A stretch of DNA of 64,000 bases from Kappaphycus alvarezii (taxonomy: Eukaryota; Rhodophyta; Florideophyceae; Gigartinales; Solieriaceae), in the NCBI GenBank assembly GCA_002205965.3, contig NADL03000635.1:806001-870000 (forward strand), read 5' to 3'. Every line of letters begins with the position of its first letter. Position 1 is the first letter of the stretch. The notes under the pieces are model-generated. The model searched no databases. It saw only the letters and a program-made list of their open reading frames with translations, and was not told the origin of the DNA. Position numbers and translations under genes: made by a program. This document shows positions 1 through 60,521 of the stretch, in pieces.

Positions 1-247
1 AGTCCCGAGTAGAAGGAAGTTGAGAGTCAACTTCAGACCCAAGAAAAAGTTTTCCTATGCTGGTCGCAGAGCACCAGTGGTAGACCCTGCTCCTTTCATA
101 CTTGCTTGTAGCCCTCTCAACTCTCTTCCATATACATTCCTTTTTGTTTGTTCAACTATACCTCGGTAGCACTTTTTTCGCTCGCAACACCTCCTTCTTG
201 GGTGGTTGGTTCTGAATATCTCTTCTCCCGACGATTTACCCCTATCA
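1..247 (+). repeat. LTR remnant of the G2 gypsy family, cut by the window edge
   Basis: This stretch matches the LTR at 34186-34453 and the inverted copy at 52085-52350 almost throughout. Shared blocks include the AGTCCCGAGTAG start, the TATACTTGCTTGTAG block, GGTAGCACTTTT and the terminal CCCCTATCA. All three copies diverge directly after the final CA, which fixes the 3' boundary at 247. No gag or primer-binding site follows, so it is a solo LTR or a 3' LTR whose body lies outside the window. Confidence 0.85.
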
Positions 248-8448: not shown

Positions 8449-8633
8449 CGATCAGAATTTCGAGACCATTTTCTTCTACAAATTGACGCTCACAATGCGT
8501 TTAACAGTATATCTCGCCAGAAGGTTCTCGACTGTGTTTGAATTTATCCCCTAAATACCCCTTAATGGGTCTACCACTATTTTGATGTCAGAATTGGGCT
8601 TAACTTTTGTCTTTTATGTAGTAATATGGCCCT
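8449..8633 (+). pseudogene. non-LTR retrotransposon reverse transcriptase fragment
   Basis: The frame starting at 8449 reads LLQIDAHNAFNSISRQKVLD. This is the motif A pattern of LINE-type reverse transcriptases (hydrophobic-Asp-Ala-x-Asn-Ala-Phe-Asn-Ser), with the metal-binding Asp codon at 8485-8487. A stop follows, then PLMGLPLF and further stops, so the copy is dead. It is cut at 8633 by the G1 LTR. It is probably the polymerase part of the same superfamily whose C-terminal endonuclease fragments lie further right (for example 16559-17930). That link is inferred from family architecture, not from overlap. Confidence 0.7.
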
Positions 8634-9306
8634 TGAGGACCACGCACCATGTGGTTTGTTTCGGAAGCTGGCGCTTCTGCGGGAGACCAGTCTAGGAGGC
8701 CTGGAAAGCTACTTGGTAGTAGTGGGGTAGAGCGACGTAGGTCGCGCTCGATAGGCGTAGGAGGATGCCCTACGGTCCTCCATGATCTTTCTCTGGGGAA
8801 TGAAGGATGGGAAAAGGGTGGGTAAAGGATAGGGTAGGCAGTCCTACTCCGGGACTGGCCAAGTAAAAGGGTAGCCACGACTACTCCGGCCGCGCGATAA
8901 AGTGGTAGCGCCGACTACTCCGGCCGCACGCTAGAAGGGTCTAGCTGTAGTGATCCGTGCAGCGCTAGGCTTGCCGCTCACAAACTAGGAGTCCTAATTA
9001 AGGTTGAACTTCCGGACTACTCCGGTCACGGAATAAAAAGGTAACCTGGGCTCGGGGGCTTTTGTTTATGGTTTACTGTGGACGGCCTAGGGTGGTGACA
9101 CCCAAAGTAGTGTAGGACGGCGCCACCTAGTGTGGCACTATCAGCTAGACTAGTCTTACAGTAATTACTAAAATAAAGGAATAATTGGGGAATTAAAAGT
9201 AATTTCAAAGAAACTACACGTGGCCCTACTGGCCCGGGACAGGAAAGCCTGTCCTTAGTTGTAGGTAGCTTATGCGCGCGCGAAAAATAACGGCCAGGTT
9301 CCCACA
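8634..9306 (-). repeat. 3' LTR of chromovirus element G1
   Basis: Read on the minus strand it begins TGTGGGAACCTGGCC and ends in GGTCCTCA, so it has TG...CA termini. It matches the copy at 22425-23183 along its whole length. A polypurine tract lies immediately upstream, and the chromodomain and integrase lie further upstream on the same strand, so it is the 3' LTR. It contains many short inverted repeats, for example GAAGC-tggc-GCTTC at 8664-8677 and GGACAG...CTGTCC near 9239. No flanking target duplication can be tested because the 5' LTR is missing. Confidence 0.85.
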
Positions 9307-9322
9307 TGCCCCCTCACCCAGC
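9307..9322 (-). other. polypurine tract of G1
   Basis: On the minus strand GGGTGAGGGGGCA abuts the LTR start TGTGGG. This is the expected position and composition of the plus-strand DNA synthesis primer of an LTR retrotransposon. Confidence 0.7.
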
Positions 9323-9981
9323 GTCGAGTACGTAGTACGAGTAACGCGAGAAGACAGACCAGGGAGCCTGGTCGGGGTGTGGTACCGCGCGCATTAGTCC
9401 GTAGAAAATCAGGATATCCTAAGGTCATAACGCAGTTAGGGTTTTCCAATTGCGTGGCAAGCCAGTACTTCGGTTGCCGAACTAGCAATGCTAGTTACAC
9501 GTCGTTTCGTGTAGGGTCTATAAACGGTCAAGGGGTTCCTTGACAATATTGACGAGGTATGGGGGCTGGGTAAACTCATCCTCTTAAAACTTTGCGTTGA
9601 GCCAGGTGATCCTGGCTGGACCCGGTTAGCAACGCTTAACTGTGAATCCAAATAGTAGCTTCTGCTACTAGACATTATACCGTCGTCGGTGATCCCCTGG
9701 GGAGCAGTCGTTGCGCTGTTCCATATTCCTCGAACCCGTGTTCGTGCGGGGTCATCCAATACATACCAGTTAATCCGGGTAAGAATCCGTTGTGGGGCGC
9801 GCCCGGTTTTCGGGCGGCTATTGACTTCCAAAAACCCGGATCGGGTGTCCCGATCAATGACAGGGAGCGCCTTCCTGGTCGAGTTTCCCCGGCCACCCTC
9901 CCGTGAATTGATTGGTAAAAGTAATTGTCATTCACGGTCGTATCTGGGCACTCCCCAGGAAAAGGGCATATCCCCTGAAAA

Positions 9982-10867
9982 ATGCAGTATCACTTTTCGG
10001 TGAAGCGCTTTATAACCAGGACTACTGGTGGGTTGGGAGATTTCTTTCACTCTCCCCAGAACACAAACCCGGACAGCCCGAGTGTTCCGCACAGCGATTT
10101 CATCCGGCGCGTCCTCTTGCTTCCCGCTGCCCTGTCCCCAGTCTAACAACCCGTTTCCTCCTTCCTCCATTTCAGCTTCATGTCAGGGCTTTTTTCTGAG
10201 GCGGATTCCGCCGAAAGGGCAGATTATCTTGCCCATGCCGCACCGGGGATTCCTTGGGCGATGAAAACCAGAAAAGACTGGTTAATTCGTTTTGACAGCA
10301 ACGCTGTTAGTCAGCGTCGTTTAGACAGGCTGGGGTCCTGTGCTCGTCTTCGGAGTCAGTACTTTTAACTCCGTTTTGCGGTCGAGGATCGACATTGTGT
10401 TGGCGCGTTGCGCAACAGAAGCACCGTATGCAACGAGGATTGCCGCGTTAACTAAGGACGACATGGACTGCGACGGTTATCAGTCCGCAGCCCTGTTGTT
10501 CGGGAAGGAGCGTAGGATCCTTGAAGGGCGCGCGGCGTTGCCGCGTGCTGTCAGCATTCACGCTGACCGAGACTACTACCCCGGTCCTTCGGATCGCAAA
10601 TTCGGAAGAAAGATGTGCCATGCTCACCGAGTATTTGTGAGCTATCATAACCTCGAAGCGGATATTATCGAACCAGCGGCGCTGGGTGACAAGTACGTGC
10701 CAATCCCTGTCGGGAGGAACAAGTACGAAGTTCCGTACGGCTTCCTACCAGAGACTCCCTGGTTCATTGCGTACCGCGGATTGGACATTGCAGCCCCGTA
10801 TGCAAATGACGAGGATTCCTCGCGGAATGTCATTGTATCCGAATGGATACAGAATTGCGTCATATAG
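9982..10867 (+). pseudogene. antisense gene orfA of G1 (unknown conserved protein)
   Basis: It runs opposite to the pol gene of G1, between chromodomain/integrase and 3' LTR. ATG 9982 opens a frame interrupted by TAA at 10144 and resuming in the same frame to 10368. A frame change near 10340-10368 then leads to an open frame ending at 10867. The translation is collinear with the G3 copy at 55615-56529: SDFIRRVLLLPAAL (10093) against SDWLHHIALPRQAL, GIPWAMKTRKDWLIRF (10246) against GIPVYRDMGADTWCLR, and SYHNLEADIIEP against PYQCREAEAIEP. The distance from IEP to the stop is 200 bases here and 197 there. I recognise no family. No signal peptide or membrane segment is evident. The sequence TCTAAC plus a pyrimidine run and CAG at 10142-10168 resembles an intron 3' end, but homology continues through it, so a nonsense change is as likely. 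Confidence 0.65.
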
Positions 10868-10925
10868 TTGATCTATGATGCTCGTCGAGGTAGGCTATGC
10901 TACCTTCCGCCCGCAACTGTAGACG

Positions 10926-11648
10926 GTGCGAGGAACATTTGCCTGTAATCTTTGCTTTCCTCAATCGACAGCGGCGGACCGCGCCGATGCCAGCGCCCTG
11001 CTGGACTTTGTTGACCAGGTACACTGGTCACAGGTTCCTGCGATGAACCGAGTCCTTCCGGAAACTCAGGACATGAGTACACCAGTCTATGCTGGTGGAG
11101 ACTGGGTCGAGTTTAACCCAGCAATCTGGGCTCCGAGTAGCCCTCCTGGGGGGCTCACCCCACGTAGTACAAGCCGTTCGATTTCCCGTGACGATAGGGG
11201 TCCTCGCTTGACGGGTAATTTGCGGTCGTTGCCGCAAGAAGGCCGTCCGACAGGGGTGGCCGGGACATTTGGACGGTCCATTGGGTCGGGCAGCTTCCCT
11301 ACCGTAGCTCAACGCGGGTGTTCCCGTGAGGAGTACAAACAAGCCGAGAGAATCCTTGGTACCATTTCATTCAACCGGTGGGGCCCAGCGTTTCTCGAAG
11401 CGCTTGCACGCAACGGTTGTCCAGGACGATTGACCATTGTTGGTCTCCTGGACTTGCTCCAAGATATCCTGGTAAAGGGGAGGGAGGTTGTCCTCCCAGT
11501 GGTGGTCGGTGATGACGAACTGGTTGAGGAGGGGGGGAGAATCCTCCCCAGTCTGGCGGTAATGAGGGCCGAGAGGGCCAGGCGTAGCCGAAATGTAGTC
11601 AGGCTTCGCAGTGGTTGGTATGTAGATAGCCCACACGTAGTTGAATAA
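10926..11648 (+). CDS. antisense gene orfB of G1 (unknown conserved protein, 240 codons)
   Basis: This is the longest open plus-strand frame of the spacer, 59 bases after orfA. Its N-terminal part aligns with the G3 copy near 56600-56800: an acidic Asp-Ala-x-Leu-Leu helix (DASALLDFVDQVHW), then GDWVEFN at 11097 against GDYVFYN at 56759. The distance from the orfA IEP motif to GDWV is 430 bases here and 427 in G3. Later parts are Pro/Ser/Arg-rich (residues about 70-120) and then probably helical (EEYKQAERILG, LTIVGLLDLLQDILV). No known domain is recognised. The ATG at 10926 is the first in frame, but a start further upstream or fusion to orfA cannot be excluded. It overlaps many short hairpins. 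Confidence 0.55.
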   Translation: MRGTFACNLCFPQSTAADRADASALLDFVDQVHWSQVPAMNRVLPETQDMSTPVYAGGDWVEFNPAIWAPSSPPGGLTPRSTSRSISRDDRGPRLTGNLRSLPQEGRPTGVAGTFGRSIGSGSFPTVAQRGCSREEYKQAERILGTISFNRWGPAFLEALARNGCPGRLTIVGLLDLLQDILVKGREVVLPVVVGDDELVEEGGRILPSLAVMRAERARRSRNVVRLRSGWYVDSPHVVE

Positions 11649-12881
11649 AGGACCTGGTGTCCCAGATTTGTCTTGTGAGAAGTATCCTTCCCTCTTCCGT
11701 CATAGTTCGATAACTAGAGTAGAAATTGTAGATCCAGGTTAACCAAGATATTTAATGTAGCATCTCGGGTTGAGTCATTCCCAACAGAGTTGTAACAAGT
11801 TTATCCTTGTTGGTGCCATTGGTTCCCTCGGAACATTCCGTAGGGACTGTTACAGTACCAACAGATGTTGGTCAGCGCCTGCACGAAGAGTTCGTGAGAC
11901 GTTTGTTGATGTACTGGATTGCTCAGTAATTTGTCTGCCGGCGTAAGGTAGCCGTCGCGGCGAGGGTGGCCTCGTCTATTGTCTATAATCGTAGTCCAGG
12001 TTACCTGAGTATGCAGTGAGCAAAAGTAGTCACTGTGTAGTGGTTGGCGGGATGGTTTTTCCCATCCAACGTGGGGCGGAGAAACACGTTGTTGGCCAGC
12101 CAAGCTGGTTGAACAGAAGTTGAGGGGTGATTTCCCCAACCTAGAAGAAACCAGGAGTCCTGATAAAGGGCAGTGCAGTCCCGGTTGATTGCACAGTTTA
12201 GACCAGGTGACCTGGTTCAAGAGGGCAAGGATGAGTTTTTCCTTGACAGAGAATGGGGGATCCCATTCCAAATTGTCACGAGGGTTCTCGTGTGTATCTC
12301 CACGGCGCGTGGAGCCTTGTTCGGACATAAGGAGGCTCTTCTTCCTTCTGGAGGCATTGTCTCCTCCAATTAAGAGCCGTGCTGCGCGCCGGTCCGTACG
12401 AATGTATTGGGATACCCAATAGGAAGTGGGCGGTCGTGCCGCTTCAGTATTTTTTTTGCCAAGGATTGCGTTGGGTGGGGGAATATTTCCCAGCTCACCT
12501 TAAGTTGAGCATATCACTAGAGCTATCTCGAGTGGTAGGCGCGAGTCGCCTAATTTCCAAGTGATCGGGTTGTCCCGGTCTGTCGTTTCAAAGGCCGAAG
12601 TTCGGCTCTCAACAGGATTTGGGAATTCCCAATTGTAATAGCGGTAGGGAGGTTGTTCTCCCCGGCGTGGTCGAAACTGGATTCCCGTTTGAGGAGCAAA
12701 TACTCTTCCCCGTCTACCTTCATGGTAGGCGTAGTTCACCTCTCCAAGGACACCTGTGTGGTACTGTGTAGTCGAGGCATCCTTGACGTCTATTTGGCTT
12801 AGCCAAGTCACAAGGCTACCCTTGTTCCAATATCGTCTTTTGTCAGACGGACGAAGGGTAATACTGAGGGTGCCTTAGTCT

Positions 12882-13038
12882 TTTACGCCGGTGGTACTGT
12901 GCCACGGCGTTGAAAGGGATGAACGACCTATGTTCCCAGGTATCCTCACTAGGCGAGTAGTTCGTCCAGCGGACGCGGTACAGCCCGCTATCAAGATCGT
13001 GATCTATAATCCGATCGAACGCGTAGGGACCTAAGTCA
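12882..13038 (-). pseudogene. chromodomain at the C-terminus of G1 pol
   Basis: On the minus strand, in a different frame from the integrase, the translation reads FDRIIDHDLDSGLYRVRW, then TNYSPSEDTWEHRSF and NAVAQYHRR. This matches the chromodomain pattern: Ile-x-Asp-His start, Lys/Arg-Trp strand, Tyr-Ser-x-x-Glu-Asp-Thr-Trp-Glu and a C-terminal helix. Chromoviruses (Ty3/gypsy) carry this module after the integrase, where it directs insertion to histone-marked chromatin. It identifies G1 as a chromovirus. Frame breaks between 13220 and 13100 separate it from the integrase, so the copy is inactive. Confidence 0.8.
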
Positions 13039-13219
13039 CCTGGTTCTTGACTGAGGTTGTCCTCATTTCTTTCCGTAGTCGGCGTTGCCGACTCGGTATT
13101 ATTCTAAGCCATCCGAGGTATCCTCGTTCGTTCCTGTCCTTGCGCAGCAAGACGGGATGAGCGACAAAGCTGCGCTTCGCGTGACGCTTCACCAGCGTTC
13201 GAGTGTGTGTCCCTCTGTC

Positions 13220-14355
13220 CTAATCGAAGAAGCGGGCTTCTTGTTCTTGATCGACGGTGGTGGTTTGGCCCTCCATCGTTATTGGTTCAGGCGATTCCTG
13301 AGAGCCTTTCGTCCCTTCCTGAGGAGGGGACGCTGATGTAGGTCTTGAATCAGGGTTTTCTTGATTTTCTTCAGTATAGAGAGTTCCCGATACCCGTGTA
13401 CTCGGCAGCGACCGAGTCGGTGCCTTCGCGATACGGTCTCGCGAAAAAGTATCCTCGGGTACATCTCGCAGGATCGTGACTGTGTGTGAGGATGTCCTCA
13501 CAACTGGGTACGGTCCCAGCGCTTTCGTGCGGAGCTTTTGCTCCGGTAAGTTGTCGACCGGTTCATTTGTCGGTGCGTTTGGCTCGTCGCTCTTCGTTCG
13601 TTCGCAGCTCATGAAGACCGAGTCACCCACTGAGATAGTCCCAGTGCTTACTCTCAAGCGGCTATCATAGCCTCGCTTGTATGCGTCCTGAGCTTTGCGC
13701 AGTCTTTTCCTTGAAGTTGCCAACATGGCCTTCAAGCGGTCATGAAAGCGACGCTTCACTTGACTCGGGTGAACATCCCCGAGGTTAATCGTCCTCACTT
13801 GCGCCAGGGCAAGCGGGTTTGGTGGGTGGCTGAGCATTAGCTCAAACGGAGTGTGACCGGCTGCCCGGTGCAATGTATTGTTGTAACCGTAGGTTACAGT
13901 GGAGTGGTACTGATCCCAGTCCCTCCCGTGCTCACTGCAAAAGTGACGCAACGCTGACAGGACTGTCCTGTTAAATCTCTCAGTCTGACCATCGGTCTGC
14001 GGATGGTAGGCTGTCGTAAACAGATTACGCGTGCCTAGGATAGAGCATATGCACTGAAAGAACTTGCTGGCAAACTGCCCTCCGTTGTCAGACAGTAGGT
14101 ATACGGGACTTCCGTATGTAAACACCCATTTTTCCTAGAAGGCTTTGGTGATCGCCGCAGCAGTTACTCTGCGTAGCGCGACAGTTCGAACTAGCTTTGA
14201 AAATCTATCTGTGATAACTAACGGATAGCGGTAGCCCAAGGATGTCCTTGGAAGGGAACCGAGGATATCGATCCACACGAACTCGAGAGGACTCGAGGCC
14301 GGGAATATTTTGAGGAAGTTTGCGTGCTTCCTAAGAGCGGTAAAGCCCACGCAAG
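13220..14355 (-). pseudogene. Ty3/gypsy integrase of G1
   Basis: The core domain is clear. The first Asp is in EFVWIDILGSLPRT, the second in YLLSDNGGQFASKFF and the Glu in HPQTDGQTERFNRTVL, so the DD(35)E triad is intact. Next come DWDQYHSTVTYGYN and the C-terminal segment (GPYPVVRTSSHTVTILRD) typical of the GPY/F module. The frame is open for 301 codons (14125-13220), and a short break near 14130 separates the first-Asp segment. The Pro/Thr/Glu-rich tail before the stop at 13220 is likely the linker to the chromodomain. Upstream pol and the 5' LTR are absent because the copy is cut near 14355 by the RLE-B fragment. Confidence 0.9.
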
Positions 14356-14790
14356 AGCCAGGGCTTTCAACCCACTCACAAGCCTCAACGCAGCTCACGC
14401 AGAGAAGCAGCGGAAATACCAAGGGTTCCTTGCTGAGCTGCCTGGGAGAAACAGGCTGGTGCCTGTTCCCATCTCAACGCTTGGAGGTTGGCATCCAGCG
14501 GCGTTCTCTGTCGTCAAGGAACTCGCGAGAACCGTTGCCACCCGCGCAATGGAACGGTTTTCGAAGGTTAGAGCCATTCTTTTACAGCGGCACTCCGCTT
14601 TGACAGTAACCTCCAATGCCGCTTGTTTGCTGGCTGGCCTCCCTTCCACCTTCTGATAGATTGGAGTGCCATCCACAGCTTTCGACGCATTGTACGGTTT
14701 CGCAATTGCCTTGACAATGGTACGATATCTACGCTCCGGTACAAATTTACTGGATACCAACCCACATATCTACCACAGTAAATTAACCCC
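14324..14790 (+). pseudogene. non-LTR element C-terminal endonuclease fragment, family RLE-B, with 3' tail
   Basis: The plus-strand frame reads FNPLTSLNAAHAEKQRKYQG, then NRLVPVPISTLGGWHPAAF and SNAACLLAGL before a stop near 14656. This resembles the second half of the restriction-like endonuclease domain that ends many non-LTR reverse transcriptase proteins (hydrophobic-NPL, Ala-rich helix, Glu-Lys-x-x-Lys-Tyr, Pro-x-x-x-x-Thr-x-Gly-Gly/Ala). The catalytic Asp region is lost at the junction with G1. The tail at 14668-14790 recurs in inverse orientation at 27317-27445, so it is part of the element's 3' end. Other pieces of this family lie at 17990-18150, 27640-27888, 46785-46878 and 47016-47340. 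Confidence 0.6.
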
Positions 14791-15949: not shown

Positions 15950-16425
15950 AATCCCCTATAAAGTGTGGCAAATCTTTCTGGGTTGTGCAATGTTGCACAG
16001 AAGCGTGCGGAGGGTATTCATAAATTAACTACGGATGCGGGCGGCGGGTGGAAACCTGTCGCGCCTACAGTACTTGGAGACTAAACGCAAAGCGGGTGTC
16101 GAAGTCGCGGAGCTCCTGTTGAGGGAGGAACGGCGACGGAAAGCAGCGAAGGAAGCAAGGCGGCAGAAAAAACCCTTGCCGTCGTCGCCAAAGGCGCCAT
16201 AGATATCAATCCCGACGGGGAAGAGGAGGATATCGTTTTGGTTGCAGTATGTGCCGTAATGACGATGTTTCTCGCGCTCTGCGAGTGTTGCGGGACCGCC
16301 TGCGGTGACCGTAGTTGGTGATATGTGGCGGCGTGAGAGGGGTGGGCAACAGTAGCGTCGACGGCGATATCGGTACTGTGAAGCTCGTATGCCCATATAA
16401 AGAGTACCAATGTAGCATCAACCAT
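15950..16425 (-). pseudogene. RLE-A endonuclease fragment, copy 1
   Basis: On the minus strand the sequence gives STDIAVDATVAHPSH with the catalytic Asp. A frame change follows, then TLAEREKHRHYGTYCNQNDI and FPVGIDIYGAFGDDGKGFF, a second frame change, and QQELRDFDTRFAFSL before the stop. This matches the other RLE-A copies, which are the restriction-like endonuclease ends of non-LTR retrotransposon proteins. The 3' untranslated part down to about 15950 matches 51640-51730 in inverse orientation. At least two frameshifts make it non-functional. Confidence 0.75.
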
Positions 16426-16558
16426 GACCATGCCGACTGCTTTCTGCGTTCTCAATTTCCTCACTATTAAATTACCATGACTGTGAGGTTATTCAAATTT
16501 TATGCGTTTTGATCCGTCACCAGTAGATGCACAGGTGGAAATGCGGGGTGATTTAATT

Positions 16559-17930
16559 TTTGTGTGTGTGTAATCTTTACGGAATTTGGAAAAAGCATGT
16601 GGGAGAACATGCTGAGGGGGAAATTTGGGGTGTTTTTAGTGCATGAAAAATATGGTCAGCTGTTCCCTGAGGGGGATTACAGAGAAACTAACATGCGAAG
16701 GGGGATGAGAGAGGAACTAATCGGAAATGCATCTGGTAAGAACTTGACGCGCTTGCAACCCATGCAAGCAGAACACAAAGCGCGTGATTAGGAGGTGCAG
16801 CTCCCATTGGGGAGTGGTGCCTCGACGGGCAGCAGCAAACGTAGAAAGGCGCCGGAAGAAAGTCGCACCCTCGGCCCCAAGGGCACCGAACACATCAATA
16901 CCAACAGGAAGAAGGCGTATATCGTTCGTGTGACAGACTAGACCGTAGTGCGTTTGTTTCGCACGTTCAGCCATTGAGGCAGCTGCGCCGCCAGATAGGG
17001 CACACTGGGAAACGCGAGAAGTGACCTGTGGATGGGCCACTGTGACATCCAAAGCGATATCCTTCCAAAGCGATATCCTTCGGGTCGAGGCCATATGCAC
17101 CAGGGATAAAAAGATCTGTGCGGAGGGCGGACGAGGGAGAGGACGAAGGGGGAAGGGGAGGAAGCAGATGTTCAAGAGAGGCAGAAATTCCAAGCTCCTT
17201 AGAGTAACGATGGAGAGCGTTACGCAAGACATTGTGGCGACGAGTCTGCCCATCGTCGTACTTACAGGTGAGGGCGTGTTTGCCCAAGGGATCGAGCAAC
17301 GGGGCGATGTCGTTGGAACGGCGAGCACATACCCGACATCGATCATGACCGGAGAAAGTCGCGCGGCCGAGGCGTAGCGAGACAGCCACTATCCAGGCTT
17401 GCGAGGACAGATAGATGCCGCGGTGAGGGTGCGGTAAAGTTGAGAACGCGGAACAGGAGGACGACTCACGGAAGGACATGAGGCGACATCTGTCGTGGTC
17501 AGAGGATGAACGGAAGATCCGATTGAACGTCAAACTGTGAAGCTCAGACGAGATAGAAGACTGGAGCCGTTCGCCGGGGACCGGCGTTTGACATCGCTGA
17601 AACAGAGAAATGGGCGACAGGGAAGCCGAAAGATCTGGATAACGAGTAGATAATAAAGAGATCGCGGCCCGAGGCACTTCCTCAAGGTGTAGGTCTCCCG
17701 AGAATGAGAGCAGATCTGAGAAACGGCTGAAAACATCAATCATCGAAGCCGCATAAGCGGACTCAGGGATTGAAGAAGCGATAGGAATGCCGAGACCACC
17801 GTAGGAAATAGGAAGGCAGGATTGCTCCCATTCGGAGTCGGTGCAAGGACCATGAATCTGTGCGAACGCCTCCCGCTGCTTCCGGTCGAAGCTGACGGCC
17901 AGAGCCGTAGATTGGTGGGATAATTTTTGA
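16559..17930 (-). pseudogene. RLE-A non-LTR retrotransposon 3' part, longest copy
   Basis: This is the best preserved copy. On the minus strand from about 17906 it starts with the polymerase thumb-like segment (CLPISYGGLGIPIASS). It continues with SLRLGRATFSGHDRCRVC and a CCHC motif (Cys-x2-Cys, LDPLGKHALTC, TRRHNVLRNAL), then RTDLFIPGAYGLDPKDIAL and the catalytic DVTVAHP, AERAKQTHYG, PVGIDVFGALG and HGLQARQVLTRCISD before the stop near 16717. This order (reverse transcriptase C-terminus, CCHC, PD-(D/E)XK-like nuclease) is that of R2/NeSL-type and related site-preferring retrotransposons. A 16-bp tandem duplication at 17051-17082 breaks the frame just before the catalytic Asp. About 160 bases of 3' UTR follow. 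Confidence 0.8.
17051..17082. repeat. 16-bp tandem duplication at the endonuclease active site
   Basis: AAAGCGATATCCTTCC is followed by AAAGCGATATCCTTCG. On the minus strand this duplicates the codons for Asp-Ile-Ala-Leu directly before Asp-Val-Thr-Val. Because 16 is not a multiple of three, it shifts the reading frame of the RLE-A copy around it. Confidence 0.9.
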
Positions 17931-17962
17931 AAGATATGGTCGGTTGTGGCCCGGAATATCCT

Positions 17963-18212
17963 ACAGGGAAATTTTTGGGTTATTTTAATCCATGGAAGAT
18001 GTGGTCGGTCAAAGAAGTCTTAACACAGCGTCATGCCGCAGCAAAAGCGACGTCCAATGCGGCGTGCCTAATGGCCGGCCTCCAGCCAGTTTTCTATCGT
18101 TTTGACGGCTTCCCGCCATTCCTTTACATTGCGAGCCTTTGCTACATCACGACATCCCTCAGGGAACAGCTGACCATATTTTTCATGGATTAAAAACACC
18201 CCAAATTTCCCC
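17963..18212 (+). mobile_element. 250-bp element with about 45-bp imperfect terminal inverted repeats, carrying an RLE-B fragment
   Basis: The left end begins GGGAAATTTTTGGGTTATT and runs to ATGGAAGATGTGGTCGGT. The right end, read in reverse, begins GGGGGAAATTTGGGG and runs to ATGAAAAATATGGTCAGC. Between them is a plus-strand frame with LTQRHAAAKATSNAACLMAG, the RLE-B C-terminal motif. A further copy of the end motif lies directly to the left (17929-17962). The structure resembles a MITE, or a retro-fragment flanked by two insertions of a short repeat. No clear target duplication is visible. Confidence 0.45.
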
Positions 18213-18465
18213 CACGTAAGTCACCCAGTTTCCTATATCAGACCCCTGCCGAGAAGAAAATCTCTTGCGACACTTTTCTCCAATAGATCGCCCTCACATT
18301 GTCCCATACAGTATATGCAAAAGAAGAAGTTTAATTCGTTCAGTCTCTACTGTCGCGGCTCACGCGTTATGCGAGACAGGGTGACGAAGATGTACAGTAC
18401 TGTATACAGTACTTGGTGCAATCCATCAATGAAAAGTACAGCCTTGTCACCTTTTGTTGCTCTAC

Positions 18466-18749
18466 TGATGTGTTCGGTGCCCTTGGGGCCGAGGGTGCGA
18501 CTTTCTTCCGGCGCCTTTCTACGTTTGCTGCTGCCCGTCGAGGCACCACTACCCAATGGGAGCTGCACCTCCTAATCACGCGCTTTGTGTTCTGCTTGCA
18601 TGGGTTGCAAGCGCGTCAAGTTCTTACCAGATGCATTTCCGATTAGTTCCTCTCTCATCCCCCTTCGCATGTTAGTTTCTCTGTAATCCCCCTCAGCATG
18701 TTCTCCCACATGCTTTTTCCAAATTCCGTTAAGATTACACACACACTAC
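18466..18749 (+). pseudogene. RLE-A 3' end, inverted copy of 16559-16897
   Basis: It encodes DVFGALGAEGATFFRRL, then FVFCLHGLQARQVLTRCISD and a stop near 18646, nearly identical in protein to the end of the minus-strand copy at 16717-16900. The 3' UTR also matches to about 18749 (GTAATCTTAACGG...). The two arms form a long inverted repeat about 1.6 kb apart. Relative to this arm, the left arm has a 55-bp extra segment flanked by CTGAGGGGG direct repeats. Confidence 0.85.
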
Positions 18750-18829
18750 TGTATTGCACACCAACAAACTGTACAGAATTACAAACTGTAAAGTACAGTA
18801 CAGTAAAGAAAACACAGGAGAGCCCTCTT

Positions 18830-18872
18830 GGATATTCCGTGCCTCAACCGACCATATCTTTCAAATATTAGA
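18830..18872 (-). repeat. copy of the dispersed GATATGGTCGGTTG motif
   Basis: Read on the minus strand it gives TTTGAAAGATATGGTCGGTT followed by GAGGCACGGAATATCC. It is closely related to the copies at 17929-17975 and 27847-27888. It is an isolated end-like fragment with no adjacent coding remnant. Confidence 0.7.
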
Positions 18873-19116
18873 GCAGCCCTCATCCCCCCGGAAAACGCAG
18901 CGGCATACTTACACTGGACTTTTGCCCCTATCTTTCTATATAATCGACATCAGCTCCGCCCTCTTAAATATTTCGTGGCCACAGCTGATGCTCCAGGGAA
19001 ACCAACAACTCAAGGAGAGGTTTTTGAGTTAAAAGCGGTCCACACCCCTTCCATCTTGGACTACGACTTTTATCGGTAAAAAAGCGAAGGCCCTGCAGCC
19101 TTTTTCAGAATCTGCA

Positions 19117-21752: not shown

Positions 21753-22424
21753 CTAAATGTATTCTGTTGACTGAGATGAATCCCGAGATAAAATATTACT
21801 CATATCGATAGGTATAGATCCATCAAATAAAAAGAGCTTGAGCATGTAAGATACAGGACTGTCCCTTTTTGTGAGCGGGTCGGAAGGATTAATTGAACCA
21901 GGTACCCATAGCATTTTCTTGATTTTGTTCGTTTCGAAATTATATCGAATTAATTGAGCATCCGTTATAATAGATTTTTCTTCAGGCACACGATAAGTAG
22001 ATAAATAGCTGAATAGATCTTTTGAATCAACAGCAACATGAAGAGGAATATTGATATTGAGAATTGTACTCTATGCTGCTACAATAGTTTTTTCTTCCTC
22101 GATAGCTTCATTAGCAGCCAATATTTCACCAGATGCAATAGATTTAACAGGACGCCGAGATAGATGTGAATGCCAATAAATTGTATGAAATATTGATTTC
22201 TAATTTAAGGAGCCAATTAGCAACCCACCAATACATCCAAGTTGCGCATTTATCGAACCGGCTGGTTTTCCAGCATTAGAAAAAAACCAACAACTAATAA
22301 ATTGAAATTTCCAGAAACTTACGGGAGCTGATACGTGCTCGTAGAACCAAAAGATTTTAAATTCCGAAGCATAGAAAATTGAATAGATAAATCACCAACC
22401 AATGGATTTTGTAGTATAATAGAG
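21753..22424 (-). pseudogene. Ty1/copia RNase H end of C2
   Basis: The minus-strand frames give NAGKPAGSINAQLGCIGG, then RRPVKSIASGEILAANEAI and finally ITDAQLIRYNFETNKIKKML and WVPGSINPSDPLTKRDSP. This is the copia RNase H pattern (the Gly-x-Leu-Gly strand, Ser-x-Ala-x-Gly-Glu, Asp-x-Leu and the C-terminal Asp-Pro-Leu-Thr-Lys). Several stops and frame changes occur between 22420 and 21990. The end at 21753 lies 11 bases from the polypurine tract, as expected for a complete 3' end. Confidence 0.75.
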
Positions 22425-23183
22425 TGGAGGGTCCACGCACCAGGTCCCCACCTGGGGGGTTTTAGAAGCGAGACTTCTTCGGGAGACCAGTATAGCTGGG
22501 CTAGAAAGCTATGACAGTAGCAGGGTAAAGCGACCGTAGGTCGTGCTCGAAAAGGACTAGGAGGACGCCCTAAGATCCTCCAGGTGGGCCTGGATTGGGG
22601 ATTTGAGAAGGGAAAAGGGGAGAAAAGGAGAAAGGAAGGAGGAGGGAGATGGTTAGTTACGGTAGGCGATCCTACTCCGGGAAACGCCCGAAAGGGTTAG
22701 TAAAATATGACTACTCCGGTCACTGTGTCTACTACGGACACGAATAGCGCCGCCCACTCCGGACCCACGCTAGTTGGTCTAGCTGTAGTTATCCTGTGCA
22801 GCGCCAGGCTTGATGGTCACTCACCTAGGCAAAAACTAGACAAACTACACTGGAATACTCTGGTCTCGGTGGTGCTGGTTAGGGAATTTTGGGGATGGAA
22901 GTTGGTCCATTGGTTCGATCGTTTACTGGTAGGGATCCTAAGGCCGACGGCCCTAAGTAGTAACGGTGCCACCTACTGTGGAACGGTCAGCTAATTAGTC
23001 CTACAGTAATTACCAAAATAAAGAAATAACTAAGGGAATAAATGTAATTGCCTTGGCCTTAAACGTGGCCCTCAAACGTGGCAATCACACGTGGCACGAA
23101 ACGCGTGCCAGGGACAGGGCAGCCTGTCCGTACTGTAGTGAGAACAGTATGCGCACGCGAAAATAGAAGGCCAGGTTCCGACA
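22425..23183 (-). repeat. solo LTR of the G1 chromovirus family
   Basis: Plus-strand ends are TGGAGGGTCCACGCACC and GGCCAGGTTCCGACA, and it is collinear with 8634-9306. It lies between two copia fragments (C2 to the left, C1 to the right). No polypurine tract follows it and the 5-base flanks (TAGAG and GATTT) do not match. It keeps the hairpin layout of the other copy with different arm sequences: CAGGT-cccc-ACCTG at 22441-22454, AGAAG-cgaga-CTTCT at 22464-22478 and CGACC-gta-GGTCG near 22530. Confidence 0.85.
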
Positions 23184-36548: not shown

Positions 36549-38335
36549 TGAAAGAAGATTACAATTGCAAGGAAAACAAGAATTTATCGAAATCCATATC
36601 TGAAGGTGTGAGCACGCCGAAAGAGGTCCTTCAAAATTTGGAGGGTGAGGATCAAGAAGAGGAACAGCGCCAAATTGGAGAAATTCAAGAAAAAGTACAG
36701 CTCCTTCCAGCCCCCGCCTCAATGAAAATATCCGACATTTTAACATCTTCCTAAGTAATTGCATGGAGCCTTTCCGATCTAAGACAAGCAAGTGTACCGG
36801 TCACTTACTCATTTGAACTTACCGATACTCAACAAATTTACCACAGGACTAGACGTCATCCGCCAAAATATTGCCAATTTATCTCAGCGAATGTTACAAG
36901 TATGCTGGAAAATGATATTATTCGGCCAGTTTCATCCCCATGGTCATTTCTAGTTGTAGTAGCACCAAAGAAGGATGGAAAATGTCGCTGTTGCGTCGAT
37001 TACCGACAACTGAGGCAGAGAATGATATCCGATCGATTTCCGATTCCACATATGGAGTAAATCCTCGAATACTTGAAGGACGGGAGATACTTCACATAAA
37101 TTGATCTTTACACTGGTTATTGGCAGATTACATTGGATGGAAATGTATGTAGAAAACCACTTTTACCAGCAAAGCCGGTACATTCAGGTTCGTAGTGATG
37201 CCTTTTGGTCTCATGAATGCCCCAGCTACCTTCCAAAGAATGAAGAACAAGGTTTTGAAAGGATTTCCATTTGCAAAAGTTTATATCGATGATGTGGTAA
37301 TATTCTCAAAACCCTTGGATCAGCACATATCGGATGTCAAGACAGTAGTGAAGAGGATAGTGGCATACAGTCTGAAAATTAAGTTGAGCAAATGCTTCCT
37401 TGCGAAAACGTCTATCCAATTACTCGGCCATATCGTCGATCAAGAGGGAATTAGAGTGGAGCCACAGAAAACGAGAAAAACAAGTTGCACCAAGGCCCGC
37501 CTCAAAGACGGAGGTTCGAAGCTTCTTAGAACTGGCCTCATATAACAGAAGATTTATCAAAGATTTCGCCAAAACTGCAGCACCGTTACATGCCAGCACT
37601 ACAAAGAACGGAAAATTTTACTGGAACAAGGAAATGGAAACTGCATTTCAGGAGCTTAAAGATTAGCTATGTGCTATGTGTCCCCCAGTTCTCATGTACC
37701 AAGATTTCAAGAGACAATTCGTTGTGGAGACAGATGCCTCAGAACGGTCTTTGGGTGCCGTTTTGTCCCAAAAAGGATGAAAACGGAAGATTACACTCGG
37801 TTCAATTCGCAAGTCGCACTCTGAATGATGCGGAAAGGAGATAATCAGTCTGCGATAAAAAAAAGCTCTCGCTGTTGTCTTCCCACTGAAAAAGTTTCGC
37901 GCGTACCTTTTATCACTAGAGAAATTTGTCTTGATAACTGATCACCAGGCACTTAAGACAGCATTCCAAAAGAAAGAAGTACATCACCGTTTAGCCCGAT
38001 GGCTCGAAAATTTTGCAGAATATCGGTTTGAAATTATGTATAGGCCAGGACGCAATAATCAGCCTGCCGATTACCTATCCCGTTTGAGGGATCCAATGAG
38101 TCCAAGTGAAAAGGCTTCCGAGGATATCGTCGGAGTTGCCGAGGGGCAAGCGCAGAACAATAACGAGTACGAAGGTAATCTTCACAGACTAATTAAATTC
38201 CTTGATGGACTACAAATGAGAAGGGTTGATCTGGAACACAGAAGTTGGGTACGCAGGAACCAAAAGGCTTTTTCATTGTGGAATGGGAAACTCTTCCGAC
38301 ACATAAAAGCTGGTCCTCGACTAGTAGCCCCTGTG
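36549..38335 (+). pseudogene. reverse transcriptase, RNase H and integrase start of G2
   Basis: Polymerase motifs appear in order: LENDIIRPVSSPWSFLVVVA, KKDGKCRCCVDYRQL, IDLYTGYWQITLD, MPFGLMNAPATFQRMKNKVL and the catalytic VYIDDVVIFSKPLDQH (37285-37330) with both Asp residues. Then come LLGHIVDQEGIRVEPQKT, the RNase H pieces FVLITDHQALKTAFQKKEVH and RPGRNNQPADYLSRLRD, and the zinc-finger start of the integrase. At least five frame changes or stops occur. The element ends abruptly near 38335 where an endonuclease fragment begins, so integrase core and 3' LTR are absent. Confidence 0.9.
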
Positions 38336-38760
38336 AAAGAAAGAAACGCAAATCGCATATGATGTCACCATTCGCAATCCAATGGCCCGATCTCACCTCA
38401 AACAAGCTGCATTAGCACTTTGCGGGGCAGCCGAATCGGCCTACGCAGACAAGGTGAAGACCTTCGACCGCTCAGTGAGAGCTGCGTTTAACCTGACCTC
38501 AGACGCTATTTTTCCAAACCGCGGTTTTCACTTTGTCCCGTTGCTTTCGACTCCTTCGCCGCGCCTTGTAAGTCAACCTCTGGGGTGATTGAGACCCATA
38601 CGAAATTGATATCGCGACGACTGTTCAGTACACCAGCGGCGGCCCTTGACCACCTGCGGCAACGAATCTCGTCGACCATATGGTCTACCTTTGCAACATA
38701 AATCCTAGCGCGAAATCCCAAGCTGGGAAGCGACGAACTTAAACTATCTTAGCTTACACT
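38336..38760 (+). pseudogene. third type of non-LTR endonuclease end, RLE-C
   Basis: The frame reads IAYDVTIRNPMARSH with a catalytic-type Asp, then CGAAESAYADKVKTFDRSV and RGFHFVPLLSTP. A frame change gives SGVIETHTKLISRRLFSTPA, DHLRQRISSTIWSTFATNIL and a stop near 38755. The pattern (Asp-Val-Thr-hydrophobic, Ala-rich helix, Lys-x-x-x-Tyr/Phe, Phe-x-Pro-hydrophobic, C-terminal helices) is that of restriction-like endonuclease ends of non-LTR elements. The sequence is clearly distinct from RLE-A and RLE-B. It is 5' truncated within the nuclease, and fused directly to G2 DNA. Confidence 0.6.
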
Positions 38761-39180
38761 GTCAGCTATGCTTTTACGCCTCTTCTAATACATGAGAGAG
38801 CTTACGCCAAAGAATACAGAAATAAAACTGCCAAATTTCAGCAATAGAATTACAGTCTGTAATTCAATTGCAGAATTCTGGAATGAGGTCGTGCGTTAAA
38901 TTGCTGAAATGTGACCAGTTAGTGAAGAACCGTGAGAAATGGTTGTGAGGAAAAAATGGTGCATTCCCATTTGTCAATGCGTAAACACGTTTTCAAATTT
39001 TCAAAAATAATTTCAGAAATACTTTTCAGAAATTTATCATACTACGTCCTTCTGAAGACTTTTCAGAATTCTCTTTTTGCGTAAGTTCACTATGAAGTAA
39101 AGATAATTATATATATCATACATTATCTGTTAGGTGTGGCCTTGCCCTTCAGCACTTGGTGTTGACGATTACATTCCAGG
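38761..39180. other. no recognised gene
   Basis: AT-rich DNA with short A and T runs and no motif. It may be the 3' tail of RLE-C or unique sequence between two endonuclease fragments. Confidence 0.4.
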
Positions 39181-55563: not shown

Positions 55564-55614
55564 GGATCTTGTCATAACCCTCATAGGGAGCTTATTATTT
55601 CAACAAATCATCTT

Positions 55615-56529
55615 ATGGATAATGTATTCAACAACCACCCTTGGAAAGATCAACAAAAAATGACTTCTCGCGCTTTCGACGACGAGTCTGCGCACGATAT
55701 CCTTGAGGACGGGCCATATGCGTCTGTTACAGCCATTGCAAACAGAAATCCTCACTATAACATTGATGCGCATGTTTTCGCTTCTTACTTTTGCCCAAGG
55801 GGCGTTATGAGTCGCGCTCGTATTAACGAGACTACTGTGATGGATCTGGGTTTCTACGCTGTATCGGGCCTTATAAGGAAACCTTAACTTCAGATTGGCT
55901 ACACCATATTGCATTGCCCCGGCAGGCGCTCAAAATGTCTCTTACAGAGCCAGTCATGCATGCGTGTGGGCTCTTTATTCGTGCGGTGTCGGACCGACTT
56001 TTATTATTGCCTGGTGGCATTCCTGTGTATCGCGATATGGGCGCGGATACTTGGTGTTTGAGAACCAACGGGAAACGCCTTTGGGGCGATAGCGTCATAA
56101 GTCTGATGACAGAAAAACTAAAACCTATCGAAGTGATGGACGAGCGTTGGCGCAAAGTGCGTCGGGTACACCAAGAGGCCATTTTATGGCAAGAACCGAT
56201 ATTTCCATTGCCTTTTTGCTTAGAAAAGCGCAATCATATGCCGTTCTTCAAGAAAAAAAGTGCGTCTTGAACGCAGAATTTGCGACAAAACGGGATATTT
56301 GATCCCATATCAATGCCGTGAGGCAGAAGCTATCGAACCTCAGCATCCTGGTCATTGCTATCAGGTTACACCTGCTATATGGCCTCGCATCGAAGTGTGC
56401 CAAGACTTGTCGTCCGAGTTTGCCCCTTCATTGACCTATTTTGAGTCTTGTCCTGCTGATCGCATGGATGGGATATGGTATCCGTTTTTGACGGATAGTT
56501 TTGTAAAGCACGCTGCTTTCTTTTTCTGA
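55615..56529 (+). pseudogene. antisense gene orfA of G3 (unknown conserved protein)
   Basis: Three consecutive open frames cover it: 55615-55887, about 55888-56270 and 56260-56529. They join into one coding line with two frame changes. Motifs shared in order with G1 are SDWLHHIALPRQAL (55890), GIPVYRDMGADTWCLR (56016), ERRIC, PYQCREAEAIEP (about 56305-56340) and a stop 197 bases after IEP. The first part contains HYNIDAHVFASYFCPRG and INETTVMDLGFYAVSG. No catalytic motif or known fold is recognised. It lies between the 3' LTR and the integrase of G3, on the opposite strand, so transcription could start in or near the LTR. Alternatives are a captured host gene, or an element of another class carried along. 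Confidence 0.6.
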
Positions 56530-56599
56530 GATGAGTACGGCACATGGCGACTACGGTTCTAAACCAAAATATTGATATCTCTTATGAAGGACCTTGACA

Positions 56600-57433
56600 T
56601 GAGCATTCCCCATGGGAGAAAGGAAAATGATGCCGTGTTAAAACGGCTATTGAGAAAGATCGAAGAGATCTAGTGGAAAGAGGGTCCCGTTCAATGGAAC
56701 TTGCGCTCTAAATGCGGCAATCGCCAAACTGTCTCGACGGGGGAACGATCCGAATGCCGGTGATTATGTTTTCTATAATCACCGGAAGGGAGTGCGTGTC
56801 ACGCCTTTGAAGGCGTTGGAAGGGCGAATTGAGCCACCTGAATATGCGGCCACGATGGACATCCATCATTCTCTTCCGGGTCCTTCTGCAGGACCAATTT
56901 CAGCCGTCATGGCTCTGGAAGTAGATTCCCCTCCACCGGCTCTATCCGGAGAAATTACTAATAATCCCAAAACGCGATAATAGTATGTCGAAGGCGACTA
57001 AACTAGGACTACAGACGATAAAAGCAACGAAGGTGACGTCGCAATGACAAATATCGCTTCAAGAAATGCGATGTCGTCATCTGCTTCAGCCACTGCGCCT
57101 TCTGAGGCTGACGTTGTCCGTGACTTTCTTAAGCATTTGGGTTAATCTGATAAAGAGTTTGATAAGTCTTTGGCAGAACTCGAAACGCAGCTCAAAAATG
57201 CAATGCGGAGCCTGCATCAGTCCCGTTTATCGGTCCTTTCAAAACCGCAATCGAGCTCCAAGAGCTCTAAATTGTCATGTTCCCCATTGGAAAGCTCTCC
57301 GTGTTGTCTAAGTGTGCTCCTCATAAGCAACTCCGAATTCGGACCATTCGATCTAGTTTGCCTGCTAGAGGCTATATTTCTCCCGCAACGGCAGGTCGTT
57401 GATATCCTGAACAAACTTCGTTTATGCATGTGA
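56600..57433 (+). pseudogene. antisense gene orfB of G3 (unknown conserved protein)
   Basis: An acidic helix with Asp-Ala-x-Leu (NDAVLKRLLRKIEEI), a stop, and after a frame change LNAAIAKLSRRGNDPNAGDY precede GDYVFYNHRKGVRVTPLKAL (56759), matching GDWVEFN in G1. The frame ends at about 56980. A second piece from ATG 57043 (SEADVVRDFLKHLG, a TAA, then SDKEFDKSLAELETQLKNAM) may correspond to the EEYKQAERILG part of G1 orfB. The C-terminus is Ser-rich. The distance from the LTR to the GD motif is 1817 bases here and 1791 in G1. Stops make this copy non-functional. Confidence 0.5.
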
Positions 57434-59405: not shown

Positions 59406-60521
59406 TTACTTACTATAATATTCGAGAAAAGGTCCACAAGACCTCACGGTACTGTATCCCCTTCTGAAATACTTGCTGGTACAGTTCGACTTTTGCAAAG
59501 TCGCTTGCTGTGGTGTCAATTCAGTGACTTCTGTAATCCAGGTGTTGATACGCGGTTCATTTACCCTATCAATGGGACTAGGAGTTAATTCCACTCGGGG
59601 TTTTGGGACTCGCTCGACCACGTCTCCATATTGGATAATGAAGGTGTCACCATCGACTTCTTTTACCCTGTAGGGTCCTGTGGCGACCAATGCTAGGTTA
59701 TGATTGCGGTCTTGCTCTCCAAATTATTTCCTTCTAAGAAAAACTTAGGATCCTACTTGAATGTACTACTTAGGCTTTCGAAACCGTGCATCGAATTTAT
59801 GTTCATTACATGCTTATTCCTTATGCATAGAAGCACTAGCTGTGCGAAAAACGCCCTGTAACCATGATTTACCCTTCAAATTGTACTGTCTTTCTGTTCC
59901 AAAGTCTTTTAAATAATATTGGGCTTGTAATGCCAAGCTCTTTGGAGTGTTTGACAATACCAACTCAAGAGGAGCTAAATTCGCGGTCCTGTGGACCGGA
60001 TTGTTATATGCGTATGTCAATGCAACGGTGAACAAATCCTAATCCTTTGGGTGATCAGCGACATAGTGCCTCAAGGCATCGATGATAGTTCTGTTGAACC
60101 TTTTTGCCCAGCTATTGGTCTGGGCGTGGCACGTTCTTGTAAACGTTAGGCTGACTCCAAGGATCCTTGATACGTTCTGGAAGAACTTTGCAGTGAAATA
60201 TTTTCCGTCGTCGGACAATAACTTAGCCTGTGGCCCATAGACAAACACTCAACGTTGCATAAAGGAAAAGGCTATGGAAGCAGCGGTTATAATCTAGGGA
60301 GACACTGTTCGAACTAATTTCGAATAACGATCAGTTATTTACAAAAGGTAACGGTGACCATGTCTGTTCCTCATCAATTTTCCAAGAATATCTATCGCAG
60401 CGAACTCCAACCGAGCTTCTGGTGGAAAGAGCTTCAGCTCCATACGGTTTTTCTGCAACTTGACCCTATTACTGGCGCATTTTGTACAATGGCGCACTAC
60501 GGCATAACAATACAAGGCCAT
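59406..60521 (-). pseudogene. integrase of gypsy element G3
   Basis: On the minus strand: HCTKCASNRVKLQKNRMELK (zinc end), FAAIDILGKLMRNRHGHRYL with the first Asp, and YGPQAKLLSDDGKYFTAKFF with the second. HAQTNSWAKRFNRTIIDALR has Lys in place of the catalytic Glu. Then LTYAYNNPVHRTANLAPLEL, and finally ATGPYRVKEVDGDTFIIQYG with RVPKPRVELTPSP (59690-59600), the GPY/F module. Stops near 60290 and 60038 and a frame change near 59810 break it. Overall layout equals G1. Confidence 0.88.

What the first reader, a model, noticed from the sequence alone, without database searches (positions are those of the whole stretch)
9307..11648. Antisense gene pair between integrase and 3' LTR of chromovirus G1, shared with G3
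Two plus-strand coding lines lie opposite to the element's own genes. They share collinear motifs with the same region of G3: SDFIRRV/SDWLHHI, GIP, EADIIEP/EAEAIEP and GDWVEFN/GDYVFYN. Spacing also agrees: 430 against 427 bases from IEP to GD, 200 against 197 from IEP to the orfA stop, and 1791 against 1817 from the LTR edge to GD. The two LTRs show no obvious similarity, so these are separate lineages that kept the same antisense genes. In plants some Tat-lineage gypsy elements carry extra ORFs at this site, some antisense. I know of no such conserved pair outside plants and recognise no family.
Basis: partly seen in the sequence, partly recalled or inferred. Interest (0 to 1): 0.9.

Follow-up and report, generated by a model that had tools for sequence, protein, structure and literature searches.

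The report
Backwards gene in algal gypsy retrotransposons
A large clade of gypsy-type jumping genes, in what is probably a red alga, carries one unknown protein gene written backwards between its integrase and its end repeat, and that protein has been kept by selection about as strictly as the element's own enzymes.

Summary
The plus-strand coding lines opposite G1's integrase are real, but they are pieces of ONE antisense gene (about 10180-11648 in G1, 55660-56980 in G3), not a pair. Compared directly, the two window copies align no better than shuffles. With genome copies the homology is clear: an open 444-aa G3-type ORF matches a 421-aa G1-type frame at E=4e-14.

The frame is under protein constraint: dN/dS 0.17 and 0.19 (G1 type) and 0.26 (G3 type), against 0.27 and 0.16 for integrase and chromodomain. 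Genome-wide, 98 merged places match protein P0001 of a third lineage. 44 of 98 have a listed G3-type integrase within 10 kb, and in 44 of 44 it is downstream on the opposite strand (about 0.9 expected by chance). Antisense-gene and integrase divergences track each other (r=0.95). No known domain scored above noise.

It is an unnamed accessory gene of a gypsy clade including chromovirus G1. The layout resembles plant Tat/Retand antisense ORFs, but the protein differs. Its function is inferred only: most likely regulation or protection of the element. The same elements are packed with short hairpins, unexplained.

The parts
10180..11648 (+). G1 copy of the antisense gene, decayed: ATG at 10180; open pieces 10147-10368 (frame 1), 10325-10867 (frame 2), 10923-11648 (frame 0)
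   Evidence: start codon; first part found in 22 of 24, second in 23 of 24 divergent copies; third-position changes, dN/dS 0.17 and 0.19; one frame in 21 of 33 copies
55660..56980 (+). G3 copy of the same antisense gene, decayed: pieces 55564-55887, 55827-56270, 56224-56529, 56654-56980
   Evidence: the relative L048 is one open 444-aa ORF; G3-type dN/dS 0.26
8617..9306 (-). 3' LTR of G1 (element reads on the minus strand; TGTGGG...CTACA ends, set by eye)
   Evidence: sequence; matches 22474-23049 at 80-86% in pieces; LTR match found on this side in 12 of 12 close and 18 of 24 divergent copies
9307..10179 (+). leader between LTR edge and start codon of the antisense gene; no codon structure seen
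   Evidence: codon-position mismatches .165/.214/.227 over about 1,500 aligned bases of 9310-9970 in 24 divergent copies, so only partly alignable; the frame 9979-10143 is found only in close copies
11649..12845 (.). spacer between the antisense gene and the chromodomain; specific to the G1 subfamily (the 232-aa minus frame 11801-12499 is not conserved)
   Evidence: no aligned bases of 11650-12840 in 24 divergent copies; tblastn of the minus frame hits the 12 close copies only
12846..13103 (-). chromodomain of G1
   Evidence: Pfam PF00385 E=2.3e-8
13223..14473 (-). integrase remnant of G1 (13223-14134 and 14135-14473, one stop between)
   Evidence: 49% aa identity over 177 residues with G3 integrase, E=1e-50, stops read through by tblastx; weak rve hit below Pfam's cut-off
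59406..60458 (-). integrase remnant of G3 with a GPY/F-like end (motif recalled); no chromodomain recognised

Best explanation
SHOWN BY SEQUENCE: a clade of Ty3/gypsy elements that includes chromovirus G1 carries one accessory gene of about 440-490 codons. It is read from the strand opposite to gag-pol; in the two window copies it starts 0.7-0.9 kb from the inner edge of the 3' LTR and ends 1.2-2.4 kb before the end of pol. It has been inherited together with pol through several element lineages and kept as a protein while those lineages were active; after insertion the copies decay. INFERRED: it is transcribed from a promoter in or next to the 3' LTR, towards pol, giving an mRNA separate from the gag-pol RNA. 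Its product is a soluble intracellular accessory protein (no membrane-like segment) that acts on the element's own life cycle. The most likely role is control of the element's expression or its protection from silencing, as proposed for plant antisense ORFs and known (recalled) for retroviral antisense proteins. A separate antisense promoter would let the element time this protein independently of gag-pol.
For: One ORF: L048 is open for 444 codons from its ATG, L056 for at least 466, and 21 of 33 G1-type copies join both parts in frame. Homology of types: E=4e-14. Constraint: third-position mismatch 0.48-0.51 against 0.17-0.25 at positions 1 and 2; dN/dS 0.17/0.19 with 0.7%/0.5% stops, while the minus frame sharing the wobble position gives 0.36/0.32 with 4.6%/1.9% stops and the other four frames 0.9-2.2; G3 type 0.26. 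Part of the element: 44 of 44 and 25 of 26 integrase neighbours are downstream on the opposite strand; distance correlation r=0.95 over 190 pairs of 20 loci, 0 of 2000 permutations reach it. Family size: 110 matches, 98 merged places, a lower bound. Further homologues in public protein data: P0001, P0003, P0004 and P0007. No membrane-like segment: highest 19-residue hydropathy mean 1.61 in four members.
Against: No RNA evidence: transcription, promoter and splicing are untested. Function rests on analogy only: nothing above noise in Pfam, PHROGs or PDB, and both structure models are too poor to use (mean pLDDT 41 and 37). No fetched G1-type copy was seen open from start codon to stop. dN/dS is a pooled pairwise estimate against one reference, not tree-based. 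The minus frame sharing the wobble position also has dN/dS below 1 (0.32-0.42), expected as a shadow of the plus frame; its stops are about 4-9 times as frequent. Among close copies the plus frame gives 0.61-0.64, but other frames give 0.47-1.71, so close copies say little. One of 26 G1-type neighbours (C704) is an upstream same-strand integrase at 7.5 kb, probably another element. 54 of 98 places had no listed integrase within 10 kb, but only 150 of 1805 candidates were listed. 11 of 24 divergent loci showed no pol and 6 of 24 no LTR match in the fetched stretch.
Confidence: 0.85

Rival explanations
1. The protein counters host silencing: overlapping sense and antisense transcripts would make double-stranded RNA, and the antisense protein (together with the pervasive short hairpins of these elements) lets both transcripts coexist.
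For: Antisense gene and hairpin excess occur in the same elements: hairpins are 1.9-2.6 times shuffles in the window's G3 regions, 1.6-3.9 in its ten fetched relatives and 3.4-5.0 in the 12 close G1 copies, against 0.96 and 1.07 in two other gypsy elements of the window. G-T and A-C mismatches in stems are about equally enriched, so neither strand is favoured.
Against: No silencing-suppressor domain recognised; no small-RNA data; hairpins also fill the LTR and integrase, outside the antisense gene; only two gypsy elements without the gene were compared.
Confidence: 0.2
2. Transcriptional or copy-number regulator acting in the nucleus, like the retroviral HBZ protein (recalled) or the nuclear product of maize Grande gene23.
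For: Same position and orientation as the plant antisense ORFs, for which nuclear localisation (Grande) and a regulatory role are reported or proposed (PMC7264820, passages and section 7 read; PMC11963269, passages).
Against: No bZIP, SMC or TRP28 match; calculated pI 5.05 to 8.96 across four members or parts of members shows no common basic character; localisation untested.
Confidence: 0.4
3. The antisense RNA, not the protein, is the functional product; open frames are incidental.
For: Non-coding antisense RNAs of LTR and other elements are known (micropia, TART, IAP; in PMC7264820, passages). The alignable part of the leader before the start codon shows no codon structure.
Against: Codon-position pattern, dN/dS 0.17-0.26 and low stop rates in one plus frame in two types; open frames of 444 and at least 466 codons.
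Confidence: 0.04
4. Envelope-like or other structural protein, merely in reverse orientation.
For: Position between pol and 3' LTR, where env-like genes sit.
Against: Antisense orientation in 44 of 44 placed copies; no membrane-like segment; the PDB near-hits to gp120 are E=0.87-0.96 and a totivirus coat hit is E=1.3, i.e. noise.
Confidence: 0.05
5. The reader's similarity is chance and the ORFs are by-products of base composition or of palindromes in a hairpin-rich sequence.
For: Two-copy alignment not better than shuffles; hairpin excess in the region.
Against: E=4e-14 between types, constraint strongest in one plus frame, 98 places genome-wide.
Confidence: 0.01

Closest known systems
Plant Tat-lineage elements with antisense ORFs between pol and 3' LTR (Retand, Grande, RIRE2; 'aORF-3R')
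   Same: Gypsy element; extra ORF in antisense between pol and 3' LTR; long pol-3'LTR region; kept in most copies; function unknown (PMC7264820 and PMC11963269, passages read)
   Different: Different protein: no TRP28 (PF04195) match in any member scanned. Retand is a non-chromovirus lineage; G1 has a chromodomain. No long tandem-repeat array between pol and LTR in G1 or G3. Probable host is a red alga, not a flowering plant.
Retroviral antisense genes (HTLV-1 HBZ, HIV-1 ASP; recalled; HTLV antisense promoter mentioned in PMC7264820)
   Same: Protein gene on the strand opposite gag-pol, expected to start from the 3' LTR side
   Different: No bZIP match; the gene lies in its own stretch rather than overlapping env; expression untested here
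Bdelloid rotifer LTR elements with additional ORF3 (PMC5408684, abstract start and passages read)
   Same: Accessory ORFs in addition to gag and pol, shared between diverse LTR elements
   Different: ORF3 types named env, DEDDy, GDSL and others; the passages read do not report antisense orientation of the ORF
Env-like sense ORFs of plant elements
   Different: Sense orientation and membrane segments; neither is met here

Membership tests
Ty3/gypsy chromovirus (host element of the G1 copy) | Chromodomain at the integrase C-terminus | tested here: met
   PF00385 E=2.3e-8 at 12846-13103; the G1 chromodomain is found by tblastn in 11 of 12 close and 12 of 24 divergent loci
Ty3/gypsy chromovirus (G3 copy) | Chromodomain at the integrase C-terminus | tested here: inconclusive
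   59409-59723 has no Pfam match; minus frames 57000-59800 are heavily decayed
Plant aORF-3R class | ORF antisense to gag-pol between pol and 3' LTR | tested here: met
Retand/Tat antisense TRP28 protein | TRP28 domain (PF04195) | tested here: not met
   absent among matches at E<=1 in 24 members and at E<=10 in P0001, P0003-P0007, L048 and L056
Retand/Tat lineage | Non-chromovirus pol lineage | tested here: not met
   G1 has a chromodomain; no pol tree was built
[quoted passage not shown]
   only arrays of 28 bases (in the LTR) and 42 bases in the two element regions
HBZ-like retroviral antisense protein | bZIP domain | tested here: not met
   no such Pfam match
HBZ-like retroviral antisense gene | Antisense transcript initiated in the 3' LTR | not testable with these tools
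   no transcriptome data
Env-like protein | Sense orientation with transmembrane segment | tested here: not met
   opposite strand in 44 of 44 placed copies; highest 19-residue hydropathy mean 1.61 in four members

The most novel reading that the evidence does not exclude
An old and very large clade of gypsy elements, centred on red-algal chromoviruses, has an antisense accessory gene as a standard part of its genome, encoding a protein family unrelated to any known one. The gene works together with an element-wide excess of short hairpins so that sense and antisense RNAs of the same element can coexist without triggering silencing.
Probability: 0.2. Interest if true: 0.85.

Novelty: new variant of a known kind. 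Interest (0 to 1): 0.62.

Why it matters
As far as the papers seen here go, antisense ORFs of LTR retrotransposons are described in flowering plants, where their purpose has stayed open. A second, apparently unrelated antisense protein, kept by selection in a clade containing chromoviruses and probably in a red alga, points to convergent gain of a reverse-strand accessory gene. Having at least 98 diverged places, some with long open frames, makes it possible to ask what such genes do. It also suggests that gypsy pol-3'LTR regions outside plants should be annotated on both strands.

Tried and rejected
REJECTED: gene pair; chance similarity; antisense RNA without protein; env-like protein; TRP28 membership; the minus frame 11801-12499 as a conserved gene (found only in close copies).

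Weak database hits taken as noise: Pfam E=0.16 and 0.2 (one of 24 members each), 1.3, 0.064 and 0.069, 0.017; PHROGs 0.017, family of unknown function; PDB 0.87-0.96 and 0.51. Hairpins as recent mutation clusters between close copies: only a small excess over random changes. Paper searches for a non-plant antisense ORF or a red-algal description: none seen in the listings (25 of 88 papers listed, 12 of 43); searches for the presumed host genome gave nothing usable.
Full report
WHERE IT IS. The window is G000:C631:806001-870000 of an unnamed 336-Mb assembly in 884 contigs. It is rich in retroelement pieces (gag, protease, RT and integrase matches; no tRNA and no Rfam hit). Phycobilisome-domain frames occur on three contigs (PF00502, E=2.7e-20, 2.7e-20 and 2.1e-5; of 14 control genomes only Synechococcus rings), which points to a red alga. 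The size matches my memory of the Kappaphycus alvarezii assembly; that name is recall and was not confirmed.

THE ELEMENT. G1 reads on the minus strand. Its 3' LTR is 8617-9306 (ends TGTGGG...CTACA in element sense, with a purine-rich tract next to it, judged by eye). The chromodomain is at 12846-13103 and the integrase remnant at 13223-14473. An LTR-like stretch at 22409-23183 matches the 3' LTR at 80-86% in pieces, but comparison with G3 showed no RT of G1 in between, so G1 is a remnant. G3 has its integrase remnant at 59406-60458, RT pieces further right and an antisense gene at 55660-56980; its 5' end lies outside the window, and its LTR edge (about 54945) is judged by eye only.

CHECK OF THE OBSERVATION. 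tblastx finds the G1/G3 integrase match (E=1e-50) but nothing for the plus-strand frames.

COPIES. A DNA search of the own genome with 10000-11600 gave 40 places: 13 nearly full-length at 89-100% including the window, one partial at 93%, and 26 at 65-74%. I fetched 36 of the 39 others (12 close, 24 divergent). The first part of the protein is found in 22 of 24 divergent copies and the second in 23 of 24, at about 33-74% amino-acid identity per matched piece, while the minus-strand frame 11801-12499 is found in the 12 close copies only. The G3 region gave 29 places including the window, of which 10 were fetched as stretches of 0.9-1.4 kb.

ONE GENE. In 21 of 33 copies with both parts, the end of the first and the start of the second share a frame; in 16 of these the link has no stop. 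L016 is open for 421 codons across both parts, though its upstream part carries a stop and its end departs from the other copies; no fetched G1-type copy was seen open throughout. The G3-type L048 is open for 444 codons from its ATG to a stop, and L056 of a further lineage for at least 466 codons. L048 against L016: 24% identity over 231 residues, E=4e-14. An alignment of ten sequences from several lineages has nine invariant and seven nearly invariant columns.

CONSTRAINT. In 24 divergent copies the mismatch rates at codon positions 1, 2 and 3 are .24/.19/.51.24/.19/.49 and .25/.17/.48 for the three parts; close copies show no comparable pattern (.07/.08/.05.06/.04/.06.06/.04/.08). Pooled dN/dS is 0.17 and 0.19 in the plus frame with 0.7% and 0.5% stops. 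The minus frame sharing the wobble position gives 0.36 and 0.32 with 4.6% and 1.9% stops; the other four frames give 0.9-2.2. On the minus strand integrase gives 0.27 and chromodomain 0.16. Close copies give 0.64 and 0.61 in the plus frame, not distinct from other frames (0.47-1.71). In the G3 type, ten other sequences against L048 give 0.26 with 0.65% stops; other frames give 0.42-1.51 with 3.0-5.5% stops. Position 2 changes less than position 1 on the plus strand, which also favours that strand.

ALWAYS REVERSED WHERE PLACED. Of the 36 fetched G1-type loci, an LTR match lies on the expected side in 12 of 12 close and 18 of 24 divergent ones, and pol on the opposite strand downstream in 12 of 12 and 13 of 24; several loci end about where pol would be reached. 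Three same-strand integrase hits (L020, L025, L027) lie at the far left ends, away from the gene. A search of the own genome with protein P0001 gave 110 matches (509 candidates, 109 scored), 98 places after merging. Against the 150 listed G3-type integrase hits (of 1805 candidates), 44 of 98 have one within 10 kb, and 44 of 44 are downstream on the opposite strand. With five hits added the figure is 45 of 45, at 2.0-5.7 kb; about 0.9 is expected by chance. Against the 130 listed G1-type integrase hits (of 5873), 15 of 98 and 26 of 40 have a neighbour; 15 of 15 and 25 of 26 are downstream and opposite, and the exception (C704) lies 7.5 kb upstream on the same strand. Antisense and pol distances correlate at r=0.95 over 190 pairs of 20 loci (those with enough of both), with 0 of 2000 permutations as high. 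This is what joint inheritance predicts.

WIDER. Protein searches found P0001, P0003, P0004 and P0007 (ENA) and P0002, P0005 and P0006 (lgn); in each search only the 7996 candidates sharing most words were scored. By eye P0002 and P0006 match L052 and L057 almost letter for letter, so they are probably from the same or a very near species; the others look like further lineages, host unknown. Nothing was found in prokaryote, viral-contig or phage collections; the one viral-contig hit covers 16 residues and is taken as chance.

WHAT IT MAY DO. Nothing above noise in Pfam, PHROGs or PDB; structure models are unusable. Four members have no membrane-like segment; conserved positions include R, E, Y, P, V, G and W. 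Function is therefore inferred from position, selection and analogy: an accessory protein made from its own antisense transcript, most likely a regulator or protector of the element. The steps shown are the gene, its selection and its linkage; transcription, promoter and activity are inferred.

COMPARED WITH WHAT IS KNOWN. Plant papers describe antisense ORFs between pol and 3' LTR (PMC7264820; passages, including the abstract, and section 7 read) and, in Retand, a TRP28 domain in 97% of clusters (PMC11963269; passages, including the abstract, read). The architecture is the same kind; the protein, the chromodomain of G1, the absence of long tandem arrays and the probable host differ. I saw no report of a red-algal or other non-plant retrotransposon case with such a protein gene in the listings, nor in the passages read of PMC12477816 and PMC5408684; that is not a full literature review.

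HAIRPINS. The same elements are packed with short perfect hairpins: in the window 22-25 per kb between 10 and 14 kb against about 5-6 in shuffles. The 12 close copies are 3.4-5.0 times enriched, the ten G3-type stretches 1.6-3.9; the 24 divergent loci run from 1.15 to 3.8, and three of the five lowest have neither LTR nor pol match. Two other gypsy elements of the window are at 0.96 and 1.07. Perfect 7-base arms are 14.6-fold enriched in 11 of 12 close copies and 9.8-fold in 18 of 24 divergent ones; the six left out include the five weakest. Positions are only weakly conserved (antisense gene: paired cells unchanged .585 against .464; double changes restoring a Watson-Crick pair .444 against .364). 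Cause unknown.

Noticed in passing
8617-14473 and 55660-62553; L010-L055: Short perfect hairpins (loops about 3-9 bases) are several-fold over dinucleotide shuffles across LTR, antisense gene, spacer and pol of this gypsy clade, but not in two other gypsy elements of the window; positions only weakly conserved, no strand bias in G-T against A-C mismatches. A few other 1-kb blocks also reach z of about 3 (1-1000, 38001-39000).
   Followed up: partly
39822-40424 (+): 200-aa ATG ORF beside a minus-strand gypsy element (gag 44060-45502, RT about 40.7-41.8 kb), on the opposite strand; no Pfam match. Could be another antisense ORF or a chance frame.
   Followed up: no
G000 contigs C460 and C695; C749: Identical or same-scoring copies at paired places (for example L021 and L022, distance 0.000) suggest uncollapsed duplication in the assembly.
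   Followed up: no
22409-23183: LTR-like stretch 80-86% identical in pieces to the G1 3' LTR; no RT of G1 is recognisable between them, and LINE-like and other repeats lie in the gap.
   Followed up: partly
16000-18900: LINE-like (by eye) coding fragments with near-identical inverted copies (for example 16667-16900 with 18463-18696 at 99%), a possible recent inverted duplication.
   Followed up: no
G000:C74:183737, C669:240962, C837:1087743: Phycobilisome-domain frames far inside three contigs, perhaps nuclear.
   Followed up: no
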